A DNA stretch of 48,433 bases. It comes from Acetatifactor muris (GTDB lineage: Bacteria > Bacillota > Clostridia > Lachnospirales > Lachnospiraceae). Location: the NCBI GenBank assembly GCA_023664365.1, contig JAMPFR010000020.1, forward strand, positions 1 through 48,433. Reading direction: 5' to 3'. Made by a program: the position numbers and the translations under genes. Below are positions 8,734-14,971 of this stretch, in pieces. Under the pieces are notes generated by a model. That model saw nothing but the letters and a program-made list of their open reading frames with translations. It ran no database searches and had not been told where the DNA came from. The first letter of the stretch is position 1; each line of letters starts with the position of its first letter.

Positions 8734-8781
8734 ATCATTGATCCTTTATTGAGTCTGACAGGATTGAGGGGGAGTATAACT

Positions 8782-9591
8782 ATGCAATACATTACGGAAG
8801 AGGAAAGACAAAGTTTGTTTTCCCGAACAGAAAAAAATGAATATAAGGTATGTGATCTGCAGAATGCCTTGTGGGAATTGGGAATCAAGAGAGGAGACAC
8901 TGTTTGTGTACATTCTCAGATTTACAGTCTTGGTATGGCGGGAATGCCAAGAAATAAATATTTGAACATGATTTTAAAGGTATTGAAAGAAGCAGTGGGA
9001 GAAAACGGAACCGTTATCATGCCGGCTTTTTCGTACAGCTTTTGTGAAAATCGGGTGTTTGATGTGCAAAATTCCCAATCGACGGTAGGACTTCTGACAG
9101 AGTTTTTCAGAAATTCCGCGGGTGTCTCAAGAACAGTACATCCGATTTTTTCTTTTTCTGTCTGGGGAAAACGGAAAGAAGAATTTATGGACATTGGCAC
9201 GGATGCGTTTTCAATGGAAAGCGTATACGGAAAAATGATTCAAAACAATGATAAGATGATACTGCTTGGCGCCGACAAGGGCTATACAATATATTATCTG
9301 GCAGAGGAGAGAGTAGGAGTAAGCCATAGGTTTTTTAAAAGCTTTTCCGGTGTTGTGAGAGACGGAGAGAAAGAATATGAGTTGACGGTACCTTATTATG
9401 TGAGGCATTTGGATAAACGGAGCGAGGAAAATCCTCAAAGAGTCAGCGCATATCTTCTGGAAAAGGGCATTGAAAAGAGTGTACCCTTCGGCTGGGGAAG
9501 TATCTCAAGTTTTTCGTGCAAACCTATGTTTGAAAGCATCGTGGAAAAATTGAGGGATGACGAGACTTATTTTTTAAAGGAGAAAGAATAA
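8782..9591 (+). CDS. AAC(3)-family N-acetyltransferase
   Basis: This 269-residue protein of the aminoglycoside 3-N-acetyltransferase fold (Antibiotic_NAT) would use acetyl-CoA to acylate an amino group. Motifs seen are VHSQIYSLG, GTVIMPAFSYSF, RTVHPIFSFSVWG and SHRFF near residue 180. I chose the ATG at 8782, with GAGGGGG upstream, over the longer frame from 8749. Many chromosomal members of this family sit in surface-glycan or secondary-metabolite loci and do not confer resistance. The adjacent DUF4910 aminopeptidase remnant fits that type of locus. The base composition looks lower in GC than its neighbours. Confidence 0.85.
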   Translation: MQYITEEERQSLFSRTEKNEYKVCDLQNALWELGIKRGDTVCVHSQIYSLGMAGMPRNKYLNMILKVLKEAVGENGTVIMPAFSYSFCENRVFDVQNSQSTVGLLTEFFRNSAGVSRTVHPIFSFSVWGKRKEEFMDIGTDAFSMESVYGKMIQNNDKMILLGADKGYTIYYLAEERVGVSHRFFKSFSGVVRDGEKEYELTVPYYVRHLDKRSEENPQRVSAYLLEKGIEKSVPFGWGSISSFSCKPMFESIVEKLRDDETYFLKEKE

Positions 9592-9592
9592 T

Positions 9593-9879
9593 ATGAGTGA
9601 CGGACAGAAGATGTATCGGTTAGTCGAGAGACTTTTCTCCATATGCCGGAGTTATGTGAGCCGCAGGTGGGAAAGAGAGGATTATATCCCACGGTCAGTC
9701 AGAAAGGCAGTTATCACAGCATAAAAAGCATGGTAGATTTTATTGCTTATGCAGATGGAAAGAGCGATCTGCCGGAAATCAGCGAAATAATTGGCGTGGC
9801 AGTTAAAGACCTGATTCCCGTAATTGAAAAGCTGCAGCAAAATGAGCTGTTGGATGAGACTCGGGAAAATTTCTGTTGA
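9593..9879 (+). pseudogene. DUF4910-type aminopeptidase, internally deleted remnant
   Basis: Two pieces of one gene appear to be joined out of frame. The first frame starts at ATG 9593, overlapping the end of the acetyltransferase gene region, and reads YRLVERLFSICRS, which matches the N-terminus expected of DUF4910 aminopeptidases. At about 9655 the other frame takes over with ELCEPQVGKRGLYPT and then SMVDFIAYADGKSDLPEI, which resembles the C-terminal winged-helix of the same family. The catalytic centre, roughly 300 residues, is missing. Intact members are often neighbours of AAC(3)-like genes. The identification is from remembered family motifs. Confidence 0.6.
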
Positions 9880-9904
9880 CAAACATTGTATTACGGTATA
9901 CAAT
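9876..9904 (+). promoter_or_regulatory. Promoter upstream of the ATP-grasp operon
   Basis: TTGACA and TACAAT are separated by 17 bases; the -35 box overlaps the stop codon of the aminopeptidase remnant. Transcription would begin near 9911 and meet the terminator hairpin at 9942 almost at once. Confidence 0.55.
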
Positions 9905-9941
9905 CTCAAACATAGAAAATGAATAATTTTTTTACAGGCAA

Positions 9942-9974
9942 AGGGGCTGATTATCGGATATCAGCCTCTTTTTT
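9942..9974 (+). terminator. Intrinsic terminator (or attenuator)
   Basis: AGGGGCTGAT pairs with ATCAGCCTCT across a short loop and is followed by six T. It lies about 30 nt after the promoter at 9876 and about 105 nt before the ATP-grasp gene. It may end transcription from the acetyltransferase side or attenuate the operon. Confidence 0.7.
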
Positions 9975-9981
9975 CATGCAC

Positions 9982-10078: not shown

Positions 10079-11398
10079 ATGCAGCAGTTGGAATTGTTAA
10101 AGCACACGGATAAAATCAATGAGCTGTTGGCGCGTTACGGAGTAAAGTTCGGCATCTATAAGAACAATGTATTCAAGGAGCAGCTGTTTCCCTTTGATTC
10201 CATACCGAGAGTGATTGAGCATGACGAGTTTGCATTTTTGGAAAAAGGTCTGAAACAGCGGGTTATGGCTTTGAATCTGTTTCTGAAGGATATTTACGGG
10301 AAGAAACAGATTGTGAAGGATGGAATTGTGCCGGAGGATTTTATATTTGCATCCGGCGGTTATATGGCGGAATGTGAAGGAACAGTTCCGCCAAAGGGGA
10401 TTTATTCCCACATATCGGGCATTGATCTGGTAAAGGGAAAGGATGGCAGCTGGTACATACTGGAGGACAATCTGAGAGTGCCCTCCGGGGCGTCCTATCC
10501 TATGATTGCAAGAGATTTGTGCAGGAGAAGCTCACCGGAGACATTTCAAAGCTGCAGACTGGAGGACAACCGCAATTATGCGGATTTACTGCGGAGGACA
10601 ATGGATTATGTAAACCCGGGAGGGCATACGGTTATATTGACGCCCGGCAGATACAATGCCGCTTATTTTGAACATTCCTATCTGGCGGAAAAGACAGGGG
10701 CCCATCTGGTGACAGGTTCGGAGCTGATGGTGGAAAAGGATATGCTGTACTATATTTCTTCCAACGGAGGAAAGGAACGGGTGGGGGCCGTATACCGCAG
10801 GATATCGGACGAATATCTGGATCCCATGAATTTTAATCCGGAATCGCTGATTGGCATTCCGCATATTTATGAGGTGTTCCGCAAAGGAAATGTGGCGCTG
10901 CTCAATGCGCCGGGAAACGGTGTGGCGGACGATAAGGGAATCTATTATTTTGTTCCTAAAATGATCCGGTATTATCTGGAGGAAGAACCGGTTCTGAATA
11001 ATGCGCCGACTTATCTGCCGTTTTATGAAGAAGATATGAACTATGTGCTGGCACATTTTGATGAGCTGGTGCTGAAGGATGTGGCGGAAGCAGGGGGATA
11101 TGGCGTTGTATTCGGCAGCACCATGACGAAACAGCAGAAAGAGGATTTCATTGCCCTGCTGAAGAAGGAGCCGAGACGGTTTATTGCCCAGGAGGTAATT
11201 GACTTTCAGGATTTGGATATTGTGGATAACGGGGAGATTGTGCAGAGGAAAGCAGACCTTCGGGCGTTTGTGCTGATGGCGGACGAACCCCTGGTCTGGA
11301 AGAGCGGGCTCACAAGGTTTTCCAGGAATCCGGATTCGTTTATCGTGAATTCATCACAGGGAGGAGGCTTTAAAGACACATGGGTATTATATCAGTAG
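10079..11398 (+). CDS. Circularly permuted ATP-grasp protein
   Basis: This 439-residue cytoplasmic protein of the CP-ATPgrasp family (DUF404/DUF407) is predicted to form an amide or peptide-like bond using ATP. Supporting motifs are GIDLVKGKDGSWYILEDNLRVPSG (about residues 114-137), LTPGRYNAAYFEH, LKDVAEAGGYGVVFG and a C-terminal QRKADLRAFVLM. The Lys of LKDV and the Gly-rich loop after it look like the nucleotide site. GGAGGGG lies 5 bases before the ATG. It overlaps the alpha-E gene by 19 bp. The CP-ATPgrasp, alpha-E and transglutaminase trio is a known conserved set proposed to make peptide-like compounds or modifications. The substrate is unknown. Confidence 0.92.
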   Translation: MQQLELLKHTDKINELLARYGVKFGIYKNNVFKEQLFPFDSIPRVIEHDEFAFLEKGLKQRVMALNLFLKDIYGKKQIVKDGIVPEDFIFASGGYMAECEGTVPPKGIYSHISGIDLVKGKDGSWYILEDNLRVPSGASYPMIARDLCRRSSPETFQSCRLEDNRNYADLLRRTMDYVNPGGHTVILTPGRYNAAYFEHSYLAEKTGAHLVTGSELMVEKDMLYYISSNGGKERVGAVYRRISDEYLDPMNFNPESLIGIPHIYEVFRKGNVALLNAPGNGVADDKGIYYFVPKMIRYYLEEEPVLNNAPTYLPFYEEDMNYVLAHFDELVLKDVAEAGGYGVVFGSTMTKQQKEDFIALLKKEPRRFIAQEVIDFQDLDIVDNGEIVQRKADLRAFVLMADEPLVWKSGLTRFSRNPDSFIVNSSQGGGFKDTWVLYQ

Positions 11399-12042
11399 AG
11401 CAGGCGGATCATTTATATTGGCTGGGAAGATACACGGAACGGGTGTATACCACGCTTCGATTCTACTTTTCCCGATTTGACAACATGATCGACGAGGCGG
11501 CAGACAGCTATCAGGCCTTCTGCCGTTCCATTGACATACCGAACATCTATGTATCAAAGGAGGATTTCCTCAGGCGTTATCCCTTTGATGCAGGTAATCC
11601 GGATTCCATTATCAGCAACCTGAACCGGGCCTATGACAATGCCATTGTACTCAGGGAAAGTATCGGATCCGAGGCGTTTTCCTATATCCAGCTTGCCGTC
11701 TATGACATGAATAAGGCGGCGGTGAGCAAGTCGCCGCTGATAGAGCTGCAGTATCTGATAGATCATATCTTATCCTTTTGGGGAATTGCGGACGACCAGA
11801 TTGATTCCGAGCAGGTGCGGAATATGATCAAGGCGGGAAAGCGGATTGAGCGCATTGATATGTATGCAAGGCTGAAGGTATCCCAAAAGGAATTGTTAAG
11901 AGAGGTGCACCGCATGATTCCGAGAGTGGAAAGGAGCGGGCTGGCCTTTGATAAAGCTAAGCTGGAGCAGATTGAAGGCCTTGTGGAAAATCCGGATTTG
12001 GATTATTATAAGATTGTATCGATTGCGGAGTCTATCATATAA
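11380..12042 (+). CDS. Alpha-E domain protein (DUF403)
   Basis: This 220-residue all-helical protein of the alpha-E/DUF403 family starts with the signature ISVEQADHLYWLGRYTERV. The rest is a series of amphipathic helices ending in DLDYYKIVSIAESII. The family is known almost only as the genetic partner, and sometimes fusion partner, of CP-ATPgrasp proteins; its chemistry is unknown. Its start lies inside the end of the ATP-grasp gene (19-bp overlap), showing tight coupling. It is somewhat shorter than the roughly 300-residue proteobacterial members. Confidence 0.9.
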   Translation: MGIISVEQADHLYWLGRYTERVYTTLRFYFSRFDNMIDEAADSYQAFCRSIDIPNIYVSKEDFLRRYPFDAGNPDSIISNLNRAYDNAIVLRESIGSEAFSYIQLAVYDMNKAAVSKSPLIELQYLIDHILSFWGIADDQIDSEQVRNMIKAGKRIERIDMYARLKVSQKELLREVHRMIPRVERSGLAFDKAKLEQIEGLVENPDLDYYKIVSIAESII

Positions 12043-12059
12043 TCGGGAGCTGCCATGGG

Positions 12060-12911
12060 ATGTGTAAGAGATTTCGTGCGGCTTATACCGGACATGTTTG
12101 GAGTGGTTTTGTGGCAGTGCTGCACTTTGAGTACCGGATGGAAATAGAATATGAGAAAATTGTGGACAGATGCTATTTTACGATCAAGTGTATCCCAAGG
12201 GAAGATGCAAGGCAGCATTTGCTGGGAATAGAGCTTTCCGTGCTGCCTGAGACAGAGTATTCAACGGGAGTGGATTCTTTTGGGAACAGGCAGATTTATG
12301 GCTGTGAGACAGAGCCTCATAATCGGTTTGCATTCCGGGCAGCGGGTGATGTGGAGATTCTCCGGACGGATTATGAGGAACCGGCGGGTGAGACGGCGGG
12401 AATATATGGGCTGCCTCACGGCAAATGTATTCCCGGCCCGGGACTTTCGGAATACCGGCATTCCCATGACCTGTCGGGGTGCAGGGATTCCTATGAAATA
12501 TGTATGGCCTGGATGCATAAGCTGCATCAGGACTTTTCCTATGTGCCGGGAGCCACGCAGGTTCATACTCCGGCGGAAGAGGCATGGGGCATGGGAAAGG
12601 GAGTCTGTCAGGATTACGCGCATATTTATATCACTCTGCTCCGTATGGCGGGAATTCCCGCCCGTTATGTATGCGGGATGATTGTGGGAGAAGGCGCCAG
12701 TCACGGATGGGCGGAGGCGCTTTGCGGTGACAGATGGGTGGGGTTTGATCCCACCAATGACTGCCCTGTGACAGACCGGCATATCAAGCTTGGACATGGC
12801 AGGGATGCGGCCGACTGCGCGATTAATCGCGGGCTTGTGTGGAATGGGGGAGCCCAGTGGCAGAGGATATCTGTGCAGGTTGACCCGGCAGTTTGTTCCC
12901 GAGGGCAATGA
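12060..12911 (+). CDS. Transglutaminase-like cysteine protease-fold protein
   Basis: This protein of up to 283 residues has an N-terminal beta domain and a C-terminal transglutaminase-like domain. A full catalytic triad is visible: Cys183 in GKGVCQDYAH, His215 in ASHGWAEA and Asp230 in GFDPTND. The start is uncertain: ATG 12060 follows GGGAG by a longish gap, while GTG 12111, 7 bases after GGAG, is closer to where homologues begin (LHFEYRMEIEYE). In bacteria this family is usually a protease or amide hydrolase and not a cross-linker. As the third gene of the ATP-grasp operon it probably processes or transfers the amide product. Confidence 0.9.
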   Translation: MCKRFRAAYTGHVWSGFVAVLHFEYRMEIEYEKIVDRCYFTIKCIPREDARQHLLGIELSVLPETEYSTGVDSFGNRQIYGCETEPHNRFAFRAAGDVEILRTDYEEPAGETAGIYGLPHGKCIPGPGLSEYRHSHDLSGCRDSYEICMAWMHKLHQDFSYVPGATQVHTPAEEAWGMGKGVCQDYAHIYITLLRMAGIPARYVCGMIVGEGASHGWAEALCGDRWVGFDPTNDCPVTDRHIKLGHGRDAADCAINRGLVWNGGAQWQRISVQVDPAVCSRGQ

Positions 12912-12914
12912 GCC

Positions 12915-13063
12915 AAACGGCCATGCCGGCACGGATAGCTGTCTGTCGGCCCGGGGCTTTTACGAGACAGCGCACAAACGGCCATGCCTGCGTGGATAGC
13001 TGTCTGTCGGCCCGGGGCTTTTACGAGACAGCGCACAAACGGCCATGCCTGTAAGGATAGTTG
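12915..13063 (+). repeat. 61-bp tandem repeat of stem-loops
   Basis: Two complete 61-bp units (starting 12915 and 12976) and a partial third (from 13037) fill the gap between the transglutaminase gene and the first M14 gene. Each full unit contains GCTGTCT and AGACAGC as a perfect 7-bp stem. No T-tract follows. Inside an operon this could set mRNA stability or the ratio of upstream to downstream products, or simply be slippage-amplified DNA. Confidence 0.85.
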
Positions 13064-13092
13064 GCGAATGACGGGAAGGAGAGAGGTATTCA

Positions 13093-14043
13093 ATGATAAA
13101 GACAATAGCGGCGGTGGGGCTGCCGGTGGATGAGGTGCTGGAAATCAGGCGAAACCGTATTCAGCCGGAACAGCCCGCAGATAATATGAAACGAATCAGC
13201 ATTGTCACGGGGATTCATGGAGATGAGCTGGAGGGGCAGTATGTCTGTTTTGAACTGCAGCGCCGTATAGAGCAGGACAAAGAATGCCTGGCAGGGATCG
13301 TTGATATTTATCCTGCCATGAACCCGCTGGGGATCGACTCTATTACCAGAGGGATACCGGCGTTTGATTTGGATATGAACCGCATGTTTCCCGGAGATAT
13401 TGAGGGAAGCATGGTAGAGTATATGGTCGCAAGGATTATGGAGGATGTGGAAGGCTCCGACTGTGTGCTGGATATCCACGCCAGCAACATTTATCTGACG
13501 GAAATACCCCAGATACGCATTAATGAACTGCACCGGGATGCCCTTGTGCCCATGGCGGAAGCTGCCAATGTGGATTTGATATGGGTGCATGGAGCCAGCA
13601 CGGTGTTGGAATCGACCCTTGCATATAGTCTGAATCGCATCAAAACGCCGACGCTGGTAGTGGAAATGGGCGTGGGAATGCGCATAACCCGCAGATACGG
13701 GGATCAGCTGGCGGACGGAATTTTCTCTTTAATGAAAAAGCTGGGAATCTGGACAGGGGATGTAAAACCGGTAAGAAAGCCGATTATATCAACAAACCCG
13801 GAGGACGTCTGCTATTTAAACGCCGGTGTGAGCGGGGTATTTATCCCGGGTGTGCAGCATGGCGCAAAATTGAAAAAAGGTGAAATAATAGGTCAGATTG
13901 TAGACCCTCTGTGCGGGAAGGTGCTGGATGAGGTGAAGACTCCTGAGGACGGTATGCTGTTTACCATAAGAGAGTACCCCGTTGTCGTCGAAGGCTCTCT
14001 GATGGGACGTCTGCTGAAAAAGGAAGTGTGCGGCTATGAATAA
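13093..14043 (+). CDS. M14/AstE-AspA family zinc hydrolase
   Basis: This 316-residue protein belongs to the succinylglutamate desuccinylase/aspartoacylase branch of M14 zinc peptidases, which cleave amide bonds on amino acid derivatives. The zinc ligands are all present: His42 and Glu45 in GIHGDE, and His129 in DIHAS. Glu191 in VVEMG fits the catalytic base. The C-terminal 80 residues form a beta barrel-like extension (SGVFIPGVQHGAKLKKGE). GGAGAGAGG precedes the ATG. It ends inside the start of a paralogue, so the two are coupled. In this operon it could hydrolyse the amide product of the ATP-grasp ligase; that link is inference. Confidence 0.9.
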   Translation: MIKTIAAVGLPVDEVLEIRRNRIQPEQPADNMKRISIVTGIHGDELEGQYVCFELQRRIEQDKECLAGIVDIYPAMNPLGIDSITRGIPAFDLDMNRMFPGDIEGSMVEYMVARIMEDVEGSDCVLDIHASNIYLTEIPQIRINELHRDALVPMAEAANVDLIWVHGASTVLESTLAYSLNRIKTPTLVVEMGVGMRITRRYGDQLADGIFSLMKKLGIWTGDVKPVRKPIISTNPEDVCYLNAGVSGVFIPGVQHGAKLKKGEIIGQIVDPLCGKVLDEVKTPEDGMLFTIREYPVVVEGSLMGRLLKKEVCGYE

Positions 14044-14971
14044 AAGGATTATTTATGAACTGAAAGGAATATACAGGGATACTTTCCGGGTGACAGGGTA
14101 TGAATTCGGATCCGGAGAAAATGAAGTCTGTATCGTGGGCAGTTCAAGGGGAAATGAAGTACAGCAGGTATACTGCTGTTCTCAGCTGGTGAAGAAAATG
14201 AAGCAGCTGGAGGATGAGGGGCGGATTGCGGAAGGGCATAAAATTTTGATTATTCCCTCAATCAATCCATATTCCATGAACATACAAAAAAGATTCTGGT
14301 CAACGGATAATACGGACATTAACCGGATGTTTCCGGGATATGATATGGGGGAAACCACCCAGAGGATTGCGGACGGCGTTTTCCGGGAAATATCGGAGTA
14401 CCGGTTCGGAATTCAGTTCACTTCTTTTTATATGCCGGGAGATTTTGTACCCCATGTGCGGCTGATGGATGAGGGCTTCAGTGATCCTGAAACGGCCCGG
14501 CTGTTCGGTCTTCCCTATGTTATTATCCGCAGGGTGAGGCCCTATGATACCACAACGTTGAACTACAACTGGCAGGTGTGGAATACCCAGGCGTTTTCCA
14601 TGTATACCTCTACTACATCCAGAATTGACCGGGACAGCGCGGGTCAGGCGGTTCTGGCAGTCATGAACTTTCTGTCCGGGCTGGGAATGCTGAAATACAG
14701 CATACCGGACAAGCTGCATTCAAAAATCGTACATGATGATGAGCTGATCTTAATAAAAACGGCAAAATCCGGCATTTTTGACCCCATGGTAAAGGCGGGG
14801 GAGGAAGTCAGAACCGGGCAGCCCCTGGCAAACATTTTGGATCCCTATGAAGGAGACGTTCTTGAAACACTTTACGCCCCGTTTAACAGGGTTGTGTTTT
14901 TTGTGCATAATGAGCCTCTGACCTATGCAAATACGGCGGTAATTAAGCTGATTGAGAAATACGAGGTATGA
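14036..14971 (+). CDS. M14/AstE-like paralogue lacking zinc ligands
   Basis: This 311-residue paralogue of the preceding protein keeps the same layout (NPYSMNIQKRF, TDINRMFPG, C-terminal SGIFDPMVKAGEEVRTGQ), but the metal site is changed. The first His is Arg38 (SSRGNE), the second His is Gln127 (GIQFTS), and the catalytic Glu region reads FSMYTSTT. Only Glu41 remains. It is therefore probably not a zinc hydrolase of the usual kind. It may be a regulatory or structural partner of the active copy, with which it overlaps by 8 bp. It is the last gene of the operon; a convergent Rrf2 gene starts 10 bp on. Confidence 0.85.
   Translation: MNKRIIYELKGIYRDTFRVTGYEFGSGENEVCIVGSSRGNEVQQVYCCSQLVKKMKQLEDEGRIAEGHKILIIPSINPYSMNIQKRFWSTDNTDINRMFPGYDMGETTQRIADGVFREISEYRFGIQFTSFYMPGDFVPHVRLMDEGFSDPETARLFGLPYVIIRRVRPYDTTTLNYNWQVWNTQAFSMYTSTTSRIDRDSAGQAVLAVMNFLSGLGMLKYSIPDKLHSKIVHDDELILIKTAKSGIFDPMVKAGEEVRTGQPLANILDPYEGDVLETLYAPFNRVVFFVHNEPLTYANTAVIKLIEKYEV

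What the first reader, a model, noticed from the sequence alone, without database searches (positions are those of the whole stretch)
10079..14971. ATP-grasp amide-ligase operon extended by a pair of M14-type proteins
CP-ATPgrasp, alpha-E and transglutaminase-like genes form a known conserved trio of unknown product. Here the trio is followed, in the same direction, by two AstE/AspA-type proteins, one with a full zinc site and one without. The set looks like a make-and-trim system for an amide-linked metabolite or protein tag. The co-linearity, the 19-bp and 8-bp overlaps and the motifs are seen; the trio's association is established; the joint function is inference. I am not aware of a description of the five-gene form.
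Basis: partly seen in the sequence, partly recalled or inferred. Interest (0 to 1): 0.7.

Follow-up and report, generated by a model that had tools for sequence, protein, structure and literature searches.

The report
Nitrogen-controlled amide-bond operon in gut Clostridia
Five neighbouring genes in a gut Lachnospiraceae bacterium form a real, widely conserved unit that probably makes and cuts an amide-linked compound, and an RNA switch before it is shared with the cell's main ammonium-assimilation genes, which points to nitrogen shortage as the condition under which this long-unexplained gene set works.

Summary
In detail: five co-directional genes (CP-ATPgrasp, short alpha-E, transglutaminase-like, AstE/AspA-type M14a and M14b) at the stated places. 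The five-gene form is not chance: among 299 genomes of the family, 34 of 37 that carry alpha-E have M14b within 4 kb (2 contig breaks, 1 real absence). It also occurs in other Clostridia families and one more distant genome of the phylum; three classical trios elsewhere in the phylum lack M14. M14a keeps its zinc and catalytic residues wherever the trio is present; M14b is a conserved zinc-less partner that keeps substrate-binding residues. New here: the operon begins with a promoter-proximal terminator overlapped by an ANTAR-type hexaloop hairpin. A model trained only on these leaders finds glutamine synthetase, glutamate synthase, Amt, PII and amino-acid ABC genes (20 of 30 loci inspected in 20 other genomes; 5 more are the operon, 5 neither). 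Each of 14 genomes checked has one ANTAR gene, beside glnA in the window's genome. Glutamate-related genes recur near or inside the operon in a minority of loci. Best reading: a nitrogen-shortage operon that makes and breaks a (probably glutamyl) amide, with the M14 pair in Anbu's place. The product is unknown. New variant of a known kind, directly testable.

The parts
9876..9904 (+). Promoter-like site TTGACA-17-TACAAT (11 of 12)
   Evidence: many relatives have TTGACA-17-TATACT or similar upstream of the hairpin
9937..9948 (+). ANTAR-type small hairpin with hexaloop AAAGGG (A at 1, G at 4), 3-bp stem, overlapping the 5' arm of the terminator
   Evidence: 34 of 35 operon leaders have such a hairpin; covariation in relatives. 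In the window itself the isolated fold of this stretch prefers another pairing
9940..9974 (+). Intrinsic-terminator-like hairpin and U-run between promoter and first gene
   Evidence: fold z-score -3.75 for 9911-9980; model R1 hit 39.5 bits
10079..11398 (+). CP-ATPgrasp amide ligase (439 aa)
   Evidence: solved relative 3n6x
11380..12042 (+). Short alpha-E protein (220 aa); ER motifs kept; positions 166-294 of the Pfam model not matched
12060..12911 (+). Transglutaminase-like protein; Cys183, His215, Asp230 invariant in 85 of 85 rows (84 distinct)
12914..13063 (+). 2.5 copies of a 61-bp repeat; absent from 9 close relatives; not part of the system
13093..14043 (+). M14a: AstE/AspA-type amidohydrolase with full zinc and catalytic set
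14036..14971 (+). M14b: AstE/AspA-type partner without zinc His ligands or catalytic Glu; substrate-binding residues kept

Best explanation
A nitrogen-shortage operon that makes and breaks an amide. SHOWN by sequence: the five genes are one conserved unit; M14a is under strict catalytic conservation and M14b is a conserved zinc-less partner; the transcript starts with a terminator that overlaps an ANTAR-type hairpin, and the same leader stands before glutamine synthetase, glutamate synthase, Amt, PII and amino-acid ABC genes. INFERRED: when nitrogen is short, the single ANTAR regulator encoded beside glnA binds the hexaloop hairpin, keeps the terminator from forming, and switches the operon on together with ammonium assimilation. 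The ATP-grasp enzyme, with alpha-E as its partner, joins an acidic amino acid (glutamate most likely, from the recurring glutamate-supply neighbours) through an amide bond to an amine; the thiol enzyme (TG) opens or exchanges amide bonds; and an M14a-M14b pair (probably a heterodimer, M14a cutting and M14b binding or regulating) hydrolyses the released acyl or isopeptide-linked amino acid, much as an M14-type dipeptidase finishes the breakdown of cyanophycin. M14a/M14b would hold the amidase place that Anbu holds in the described form of this operon.
For: Unit: searches (67 of 80 contigs with matches to all five in order; 12 cut by the contig end; 1, L098, has lost the trio but for a TG fragment; 34 of 37), 38+44+49 (5 of 5 alpha-E genomes of the class outside the family: 4 complete, 1 cut inside M14a), 45+50+52 (G880 complete; 3 classical trios without M14). 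Clades: (trio-linked against stand-alone M14b, SH-aLRT 99). Catalysis tied to the trio: (H42 and R97 invariant in 90 of 90 trio-clade M14a rows, 89 distinct; changed in 7 and 12 of 36 stand-alone ones). Nitrogen control: of the 30 loci returned for 20 other genomes, 13 lie before GS, GOGAT, Amt or PII, 5 before amino-acid-type ABC genes, 1 before CTP synthase, 1 before an ornithine-cyclodeaminase homologue, 5 before the operon itself, 5 before none of these; hexaloop hairpin in 59 of 62 operon or nitrogen leaders against 1 of 7 other hits, mononucleotide shuffles 5.6%; 34 of 35 operon leaders that were chosen without this criterion; leader within 260 nt of ATPgrasp at 42 of 65 short-type sources, further upstream at 10, none at 13; 0 of 3 classical; one ANTAR match in 14 of 14 genomes, none in 14 control genomes; beside glnA in the 4 stretches that I opened because the coordinates were close. 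Glutamate theme: (citrate synthase inside the operon in L073 and L095; IDH in 9 loci; C26 gamma-glutamyl-hydrolase type in 13; one amino-acid SBP type in 10; L217 shows one gene run leader-ABC-five genes). Outside support: PMC5666114 and PMC6376114, in passages, say Anbu is raised in nitrogen-limited cells; both cite the same P. putida study, which I did not see.
Against: No substrate or product is known; glutamate is inferred from neighbours in a minority of the 136 loci (13 or fewer for each such gene), which are partly related to each other. No expression data for any Clostridium. In the window's own genome the glnA leader hit is weak (22.0 bits, E 1), below a likely chance hit (26.0 bits). 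The leader lacks the upstream P1 hairpin of the described ANTAR target (10 of 62 leaders have any such hairpin of 3 bp or more upstream, three of these being tandem copies). 13 of 65 short-type loci show no leader. In one search two of five measures do not clearly beat the shuffles. The M14 pair lives without alpha-E in 29 of 65 pair-bearing genomes. No structure could be predicted, so the heterodimer is untested. PMC6376114 found no complex among Anbu-operon proteins and no Anbu peptidase activity, and PMC5666114 says that expression of the Anbu operon does not change under various other conditions.
Confidence: 0.5

Rival explanations
1. Protein tagging: the ATP-grasp and alpha-E proteins put an amino acid or peptide on a protein under nitrogen shortage, and TG and M14a/b take it off.
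For: Proposed for the Anbu form (Iyer et al. 2009, as cited in passages); a ligase with one active and one inactive hydrolase would fit a tag and de-tag cycle; invariant catalytic residues.
Against: No conserved small tag ORF was seen among the neighbour clusters (which looked only at ORFs of 70 aa or more and printed clusters of 5 loci or more); AstE/AspA-type relatives in the PDB are named for small acyl amino acids.
Confidence: 0.25
2. Scavenging only: the operon breaks down imported N-acyl or gamma-glutamyl compounds for nitrogen; the ATP-grasp protein is an ATP-dependent activating step in that catabolism.
For: Leader shared with nitrogen-acquisition genes; amino-acid ABC transporter in the same gene run in L217; C26-type hydrolase within about 5 kb in 13 loci.
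Against: An ATP-grasp amide ligase at the head of the operon argues for synthesis; citrate synthase and IDH inside or near the operon supply 2-oxoglutarate, a precursor and not a breakdown product.
Confidence: 0.18
3. The leader hairpin is an ordinary terminator and its similarity to those of nitrogen genes is shared composition.
For: Terminators of AAAGGCG...CGCCTTT type are simple; 5 of 30 genome-wide loci have no nitrogen gene and 12 of 30 show no promoter match close upstream by my rule; in the window's own genome 2 of 5 hits look like chance.
Against: It lies downstream of a promoter-like site and upstream of the gene; the hexaloop hairpin, whose 5' arm is outside the terminator, is paired in 97.8% of cells against at most 54% when slid, with 17 double changes against 5.8 in shuffles; 25 of 30 hits are before nitrogen-related genes or the operon; one ANTAR gene in all 14 genomes tested.
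Confidence: 0.07
4. Chance adjacency of an amide-ligase trio and an M14 pair.
For: The pair exists without alpha-E in 29 of 65 genomes.
Against: 34 of 37 adjacent, conserved overlaps, separate clade, same unit in several families.
Confidence: 0.01

Closest known systems
Anbu / alpha-E / CP-ATPgrasp / transglutaminase operon (read in passages of PMC5666114 and PMC6376114)
   Same: ATP-grasp, alpha-E and TG together; a further amidase or peptidase-fold gene; reported link to nitrogen starvation
   Different: No Anbu gene among the conserved neighbours; an AstE/AspA M14 pair instead; short alpha-E (220 aa); ANTAR-type leader
Classical trio in other members of the phylum (G661, G853, G805; L174-L176)
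   Same: CP-ATPgrasp (40-44% identity) and TG; alpha-E beside them or, in G805, in one 633-aa frame with TG
   Different: Full-length alpha-E (Pfam 245-276 bits over about 294 positions), no M14 match in the 18-kb stretches, no leader hit
AstE/AspA family amidohydrolases (3cdx, 2qj8, 3na6; DoeB 6twl/6twm)
   Same: Catalytic and C-terminal domains aligned; M14a keeps zinc and catalytic residues
   Different: Here an active and an inactive member stand side by side; far below the DoeB cut-off (57 of 403 bits)
Cyanophycin cycle (CphA, CphB, isoaspartyl dipeptidase CphZ; passages of PMC10206079 and PMC12661447)
   Same: ATP-driven amide ligase with an AstE/AspA-annotated M14 dipeptidase; nitrogen economy (that CphZ is the M14-type enzyme joins the two passages and recall)
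   Different: No CphA or CphB match; circularly permuted ATP-grasp, alpha-E and TG instead
ANTAR antitermination of nitrogen genes (passages of PMC3369931) and NitR in Clostridium (passage of PMC4676874)
   Same: Hexaloop with A1 and G4 overlapping the terminator; same target classes (PII, Amt, GS, GOGAT); ANTAR gene beside glnA
   Different: One hairpin per terminator; the P1 hairpin of the described dual motif is not seen. The published target tables (supplements) could not be read and may already hold some of these leaders

Membership tests
Anbu/alpha-E/CP-ATPgrasp/TG operon | CP-ATPgrasp ligase | tested here: met
   (CP_ATPgrasp_2, 453 bits); 3n6x
Anbu/alpha-E/CP-ATPgrasp/TG operon | alpha-E protein with ER motif | tested here: met
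   (86 bits, positions 6-165 of 294 only); R17, R21, E157, R158 in 85 of 85 rows, E20 in 84 (84 distinct rows)
Anbu/alpha-E/CP-ATPgrasp/TG operon | transglutaminase-like protein with Cys-His-Asp | tested here: met
   (85 of 85 rows; four rows with stops left out); that this is the catalytic triad is recalled
Anbu/alpha-E/CP-ATPgrasp/TG operon | Anbu (Ntn-hydrolase) subunit in the operon | tested here: not met
   none among the window genes scanned nor among neighbour clusters of 5 or more loci; whole genomes were not searched for Anbu
Anbu/alpha-E/CP-ATPgrasp/TG operon | raised expression in nitrogen starvation | not testable with these tools
   indirect: nitrogen-type leader
AstE/AspA (M14) amidohydrolase, M14a | HxxE...H zinc site, NR carboxylate site, catalytic Glu | tested here: met
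   90 of 90 trio-clade rows (E191 89, one gap; 89 distinct rows; two rows with stops left out); roles of the residues recalled from AspA
AstE/AspA (M14) amidohydrolase, M14b | HxxE...H zinc site and catalytic Glu | tested here: not met
   Arg at the first His in 132 of 132 rows (131 distinct), no His at the third ligand, Tyr (131) or Phe (1) at the Glu; a homologue, not a working zinc enzyme
ANTAR target RNA | hexaloop hairpin (A1, G4) overlapping an intrinsic terminator | tested here: met
   59 of 62 (two places counted more than once); in the window 3-bp stem only
ANTAR target RNA | second, upstream hexaloop hairpin P1 (dual motif) | tested here: not met
   10 of 62 have any upstream A..G.. 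hexaloop with 3 bp or more
ANTAR target RNA | ANTAR protein encoded in the genome | tested here: met
   14 of 14 genomes searched, one each; own one 36 nt after glnA
ANTAR target RNA | binding by ANTAR protein and antitermination | not testable with these tools
   needs bench work
Cyanophycin system | CphA and cyanophycinase | tested here: not met
   the five window proteins match CP_ATPgrasp, Alpha-E, TG and AstE_AspA models only; the rest of the genome was not searched

The most novel reading that the evidence does not exclude
Gut and rumen Clostridia carry an unrecognised nitrogen-reserve or relay cycle: an amide made by CP-ATPgrasp and alpha-E and reclaimed by a TG enzyme and an active/inactive M14 heterodimer. 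It is switched on together with GS, GOGAT and Amt by a one-hairpin ANTAR leader, and the same basic cycle, with Anbu in place of M14, works under nitrogen starvation in Proteobacteria.
Probability: 0.3. Interest if true: 0.88.

Novelty: new variant of a known kind. Interest (0 to 1): 0.72.

Why it matters
The CP-ATPgrasp/alpha-E/TG set has had no proven role; the papers read here (passages) say so for the Anbu form. This work gives a second form with a different hydrolase, a condition (nitrogen shortage), a candidate regulator (the ANTAR gene beside glnA), a substrate class to try (acidic N-acyl or gamma/beta-linked amino acids) and culturable hosts. It also suggests a compact one-hairpin ANTAR leader that would mark the nitrogen regulon in Lachnospiraceae, a major gut family.

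Tried and rejected
Rejected: chance adjacency. Rejected: the 61-bp repeats as a conserved regulatory element between trio and pair (absent from 9 relatives; elsewhere in the own genome only partial matches). Rejected: my first reading that Q127 of M14b replaces the third zinc His (checkpoint note 2); profile alignment shows T129 there and Q127 at the neighbouring Asp. Rejected: that the pair depends on the trio; it is the trio of the short type that is rarely without the pair. Led nowhere: Rfam for the operon (one chance hit) and for 14 loci with leader hits (an unrelated Clostridiales-1 RNA, and one hit below its cut-off that overlaps the L185 leader); solved structures for alpha-E (none). 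The rough Fisher tests for neighbours used an approximate denominator and are not used here.

Literature: searches for the gene set and 86, 87 and 103 for the leader listed no paper that I could see to describe the five-gene form or this one-hairpin leader; I judged this from the listings and the passages named here. Iyer et al. 2009 could not be read and may mention M14 links; the supplementary target tables of the ANTAR paper were not open to me. Papers were read only in passages: PMC5666114, PMC12239564, PMC10206079, PMC12661447, PMC3369931, PMC2864571, PMC4676874, PMC6376114, PMC12419801.

Limits: one search kept the best 80 of 152 relatives and was queried with M14b, so it is biased to pair-bearing loci; the counts over 299, 291 and 299 genomes are less biased. 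One search lists 76 of 299 genomes with any match; I counted only the 65 with a match over 300 bits. Of 118 leader matches (sum of its table, for which only 150 candidates a genome were scored) the 30 with loci were inspected. R1 was trained on 34 operon leaders, and 26 of the 42 near hits are training rows. Repeats: L117 is the same place as L074, and L217 lies on a contig of the same length as that of L109; the hairpins of L184, L191 and L205 repeat those of L066 and L078. The check script found no other repeated M14b.

Full report
WHAT IS THERE. The window (48,433 bases, contig 87 of a 3.86-Mb genome) belongs to a bacterium whose nearest named relatives are Lachnospiraceae (several record titles there name unrelated groups and look like wrong bins). 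Five genes lie on the + strand at the stated places: CP-ATPgrasp 10079-11398, alpha-E 11380-12042, transglutaminase-like 12060-12911, M14a 13093-14043, M14b 14036-14971. The alpha-E protein is a short form: 220 aa, matching positions 6-165 of the 294-position Pfam model. Queries made from the upstream Antibiotic_NAT-family gene and the small HTH_47 gene found nothing in any of 80 relatives' loci, and no cluster of 5 or more loci looked like the downstream Rrf2 regulator, so I do not count these as parts.

IS THE FIVE-GENE FORM REAL? Yes. With M14b as query, 80 contigs were fetched (the best 80 of 152). Matches to all five genes, same order and strand, are found in 67; in 12 the contig begins inside the operon; in one (L098, a Butyrivibrio) the trio is lost but for a TG fragment. 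ATPgrasp and alpha-E overlap by 19 nt in 61 of 61; M14a and M14b overlap by 8 or 4 nt in 68 of 73; TG overlaps M14a by 4 nt in 5 of 43. That set is biased to the pair, so I turned the question round. In 299 genomes drawn from the family, alpha-E occurs in 37 and M14b, counted by matches over 300 bits, in 65. In 34 of the 37 the two are within 4 kb on one contig; two are contig breaks (G136, G174) and one (G329, L152) truly lacks the pair there. In 291 genomes of the class, five more genomes outside the family have alpha-E: four have the complete five genes and the fifth is cut by the contig end inside M14a. In 299 genomes of the phylum, G880 has the complete set, while G661, G853 and G805 have the classical trio with full-length alpha-E (in G805 one 633-aa frame spans alpha-E and TG) and no M14 match in the stretches fetched. 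So short alpha-E plus the M14 pair marks a distinct form.

THE PAIR HAS ITS OWN HISTORY. In 29 of 65 pair-bearing genomes of the family there is no alpha-E, and nine genomes have two places. A tree of 80 M14b rows (the 80 contigs thinned to every third) splits, with SH-aLRT 99, into a trio-linked clade (44 rows: 39 with the trio in the stretch, 5 without; four of these five are cut by contig ends, and L149 keeps a lone M14b) and a stand-alone clade (36 rows). purL stands 0.9 to 4.6 kb downstream of the M14b start in 25 stand-alone loci and was found beside none of the trio loci. Some loci are decayed operons: G003 keeps the leader and pieces of ATPgrasp, alpha-E and M14b (L118); L162 and L163 keep other fragments. 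L142, a stand-alone pair, has a 26-residue ATPgrasp-like match upstream that may be a remnant or chance.

CATALYTIC ANATOMY. Joint alignment of the intact rows (supported by profile alignment): M14a of the trio clade has H42, E45, H129 (zinc), D94, N96, R97, R142 in 90 of 90 rows (89 distinct) and E191 in 89 (one gap). In the stand-alone clade H42 is changed in 7 of 36 and R97 in 12 of 36, so strict conservation goes with the trio. M14b has Arg at the first His (132 of 132 rows), never His at the third ligand, and Tyr or Phe at the catalytic Glu, yet keeps E41, D94 and N96 in all rows and R97 in 129 (Lys in 3). It is a conserved pseudo-enzyme that should still bind a carboxylate; the roles of these residues are recalled from AspA. 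TG Cys183, His215 and Asp230 are invariant in 85 of 85 rows, as are alpha-E R17, R21, E157 and R158. Solved relatives: 3n6x for the ATPgrasp, 3cdx, 2qj8 and DoeB for M14a and M14b, 3isr for TG, none for alpha-E.

A NITROGEN-TYPE LEADER. Upstream of the operon I looked for a promoter and a terminator-like hairpin. In 35 of 57 loci with 300 nt of upstream sequence, a TTGACA (or TTGTAA) element is followed, 43-57 nt on in 26 of the 35 (39-85 overall; I searched 36-90), by a hairpin with a U-run before the first gene; in the window it is at 9940-9974 behind the promoter at 9876-9904. In a number of the other loci the ATPgrasp gene follows other genes of a longer run. A covariance model (R1) trained on 34 of these leaders gives five hits at E of 10 or better in the window's genome: the operon (39.5 bits), an Amt ammonium transporter (33.2 bits, E 0.003), a likely chance hit inside an ORF (26.0 bits), a glutamine synthetase (22.0 bits, E 1) and another that looks like chance (21 bits). 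In 20 further genomes the 30 loci returned lie before: the operon (5, two of them one tandem), glutamate synthase (2), type III glutamine synthetase (3), type I glutamine synthetase (2), Amt (5), PII (1), GlnQ-type or other ABC ATPase heading such a run (2), SBP_bac_3 (2), a Peripla_BP_6 binding protein (1), CTP synthase (1), an ornithine-cyclodeaminase homologue (1), none of these (5). By my rule 12 of the 30 have no promoter match within 75 nt upstream.

IT LOOKS LIKE AN ANTAR ELEMENT. The conserved start of the terminator can form an alternative small hairpin, typically GAAC-AAAGGC-GTTC: a hexaloop with A at position 1 and G at 4, the rule published for ANTAR targets (passages of PMC3369931). 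On alignment A8 this hairpin has 97.8% paired cells (33-54% when slid) and 17 double changes (5.8 in shuffles, 0 of 500 as high); the number of pairs with any double change (3 against 2.6) and of further pair types (7 against 5.7) do not clearly beat the shuffles. It is found (3 bp or more) in 59 of 62 operon or nitrogen leaders, 1 of 7 other hits, and 5.6% of mononucleotide shuffles. The hits found by R1 carry this sequence partly by construction, but 34 of the 35 operon leaders, which were chosen without it, have it. The three failures (L110, own Amt, one GSIII) have G at loop position 1. The P1 hairpin of the published dual motif is not seen (10 of 62). All 14 genomes searched have exactly one ANTAR match, the 14 control genomes none; in the window's genome it follows glnA by 36 nt, and it adjoins glnA in the other three stretches, which I chose because the coordinates were close. 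A passage of PMC4676874 tells of a NitR antiterminator in C. acetobutylicum. With R1, 42 of 65 sources with a short-type trio (26 of them training rows; one place twice; one a decayed operon) have the leader within 260 nt of the ATPgrasp gene, including other families and G880; 10 have it further upstream; 13 have none; the 3 classical trios have none. Among 36 stand-alone pairs searched, three have it within 110 nt of M14a (L132, L137, L157; one search read).

GLUTAMATE NEIGHBOURS. Citrate synthase sits inside the operon in L073 and, with isocitrate dehydrogenase, in L095; IDH is within the stretch in 9 loci in several arrangements, including directly upstream in another family (L166). In relatives with a strong IDH match there is one copy (23 of 23), so chance would give roughly half a locus in 80 (my estimate). 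A C26 protein whose best NCBIfam model is gamma-glutamyl-GABA hydrolase (110 of 266 bits) is in 13 loci, on either side; one type of SBP_bac_3 amino-acid transporter protein in 10, in L217 in one gene run with the leader at its head; a FUSC-HAD membrane protein in 23 (22 places). These are minorities of 136 loci and partly related to each other.

READING. I take it as an operon for nitrogen shortage that makes and cuts an amide, probably glutamyl, with the M14 pair in Anbu's place. The regulatory part I hold at about 0.85, the unit at 0.97, the whole with its chemistry at about 0.5. Support from outside: two papers state that Anbu is raised in nitrogen-limited or nitrogen-starved cells (both cite one P. 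putida study), and one shows that the ATP-grasp protein of that operon releases phosphate from ATP. The M14-type step has a precedent in cyanophycin dipeptide hydrolysis. It is not a member of the Anbu form (no Anbu in the conserved neighbours) nor of the cyanophycin system (no CphA or CphB match); it works like both in outline.

Noticed in passing
L114, L115 and 23 of L125-L161: A stand-alone, diverged M14a-M14b pair lies upstream of purL (25 loci) in many genera of the family; M14a there often loses its first zinc His or the NR arginine. Function unknown.
   Followed up: partly
L179, L181, L185-L189, L192-L201, L203, L204, L206, L208, L209 (own genome contigs C44, C11 and others): One-hairpin ANTAR-type leader before GS I, GS III, GltB, Amt, PII, amino-acid ABC, CTP synthase and an ornithine-cyclodeaminase homologue: a probable nitrogen regulon of Lachnospiraceae; no Rfam match above cut-off at the leaders of the 14 loci scanned.
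   Followed up: partly
L078 5013-5105 (same leader in L191/L205); L096, L101, L104, L106, L108, L116: Some leaders carry two such hairpins in tandem.
   Followed up: no
L118 7494-8050: Operon scar in G003: leader kept, ATPgrasp, alpha-E and M14b reduced to short pieces.
   Followed up: partly
L098, L162: Loci where most of the trio is gone and M14 genes or pieces remain.
   Followed up: no
L116 (G004 contig 9), L183 (G248 contig 7): Possible second copies of the operon start, running into contig ends, in genomes that already have one.
   Followed up: no
G171 contig 49: 29121-29270 and 34874 on: In this genome the only ANTAR match lies on the same contig, about 5.6 kb before the leader of the five-gene operon; stretch not opened.
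   Followed up: no
window 12914-13063: 2.5 tandem 61-bp GC-rich repeats with a strong fold (z -3.15), not seen in 9 close relatives.
   Followed up: partly
window 8749-9591 and 9643-9879: Antibiotic_NAT-family protein scoring far below the AAC(3) cut-offs (53 of 270 bits) and a small HTH_47 protein; not linked to the operon in relatives.
   Followed up: no
window 9886-9903: Inverted repeat TTGTAT-N6-ATACAA overlapping the -10 of the operon promoter; could be an operator. Not seen in the aligned relatives.
   Followed up: no
L037, L040, L065, L069, L109 (L217): A protein of about 200 aa that reads like a cytidylate kinase (not family-tested) sits between the amino-acid ABC transporter and the ATPgrasp gene in the longer gene runs.
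   Followed up: no
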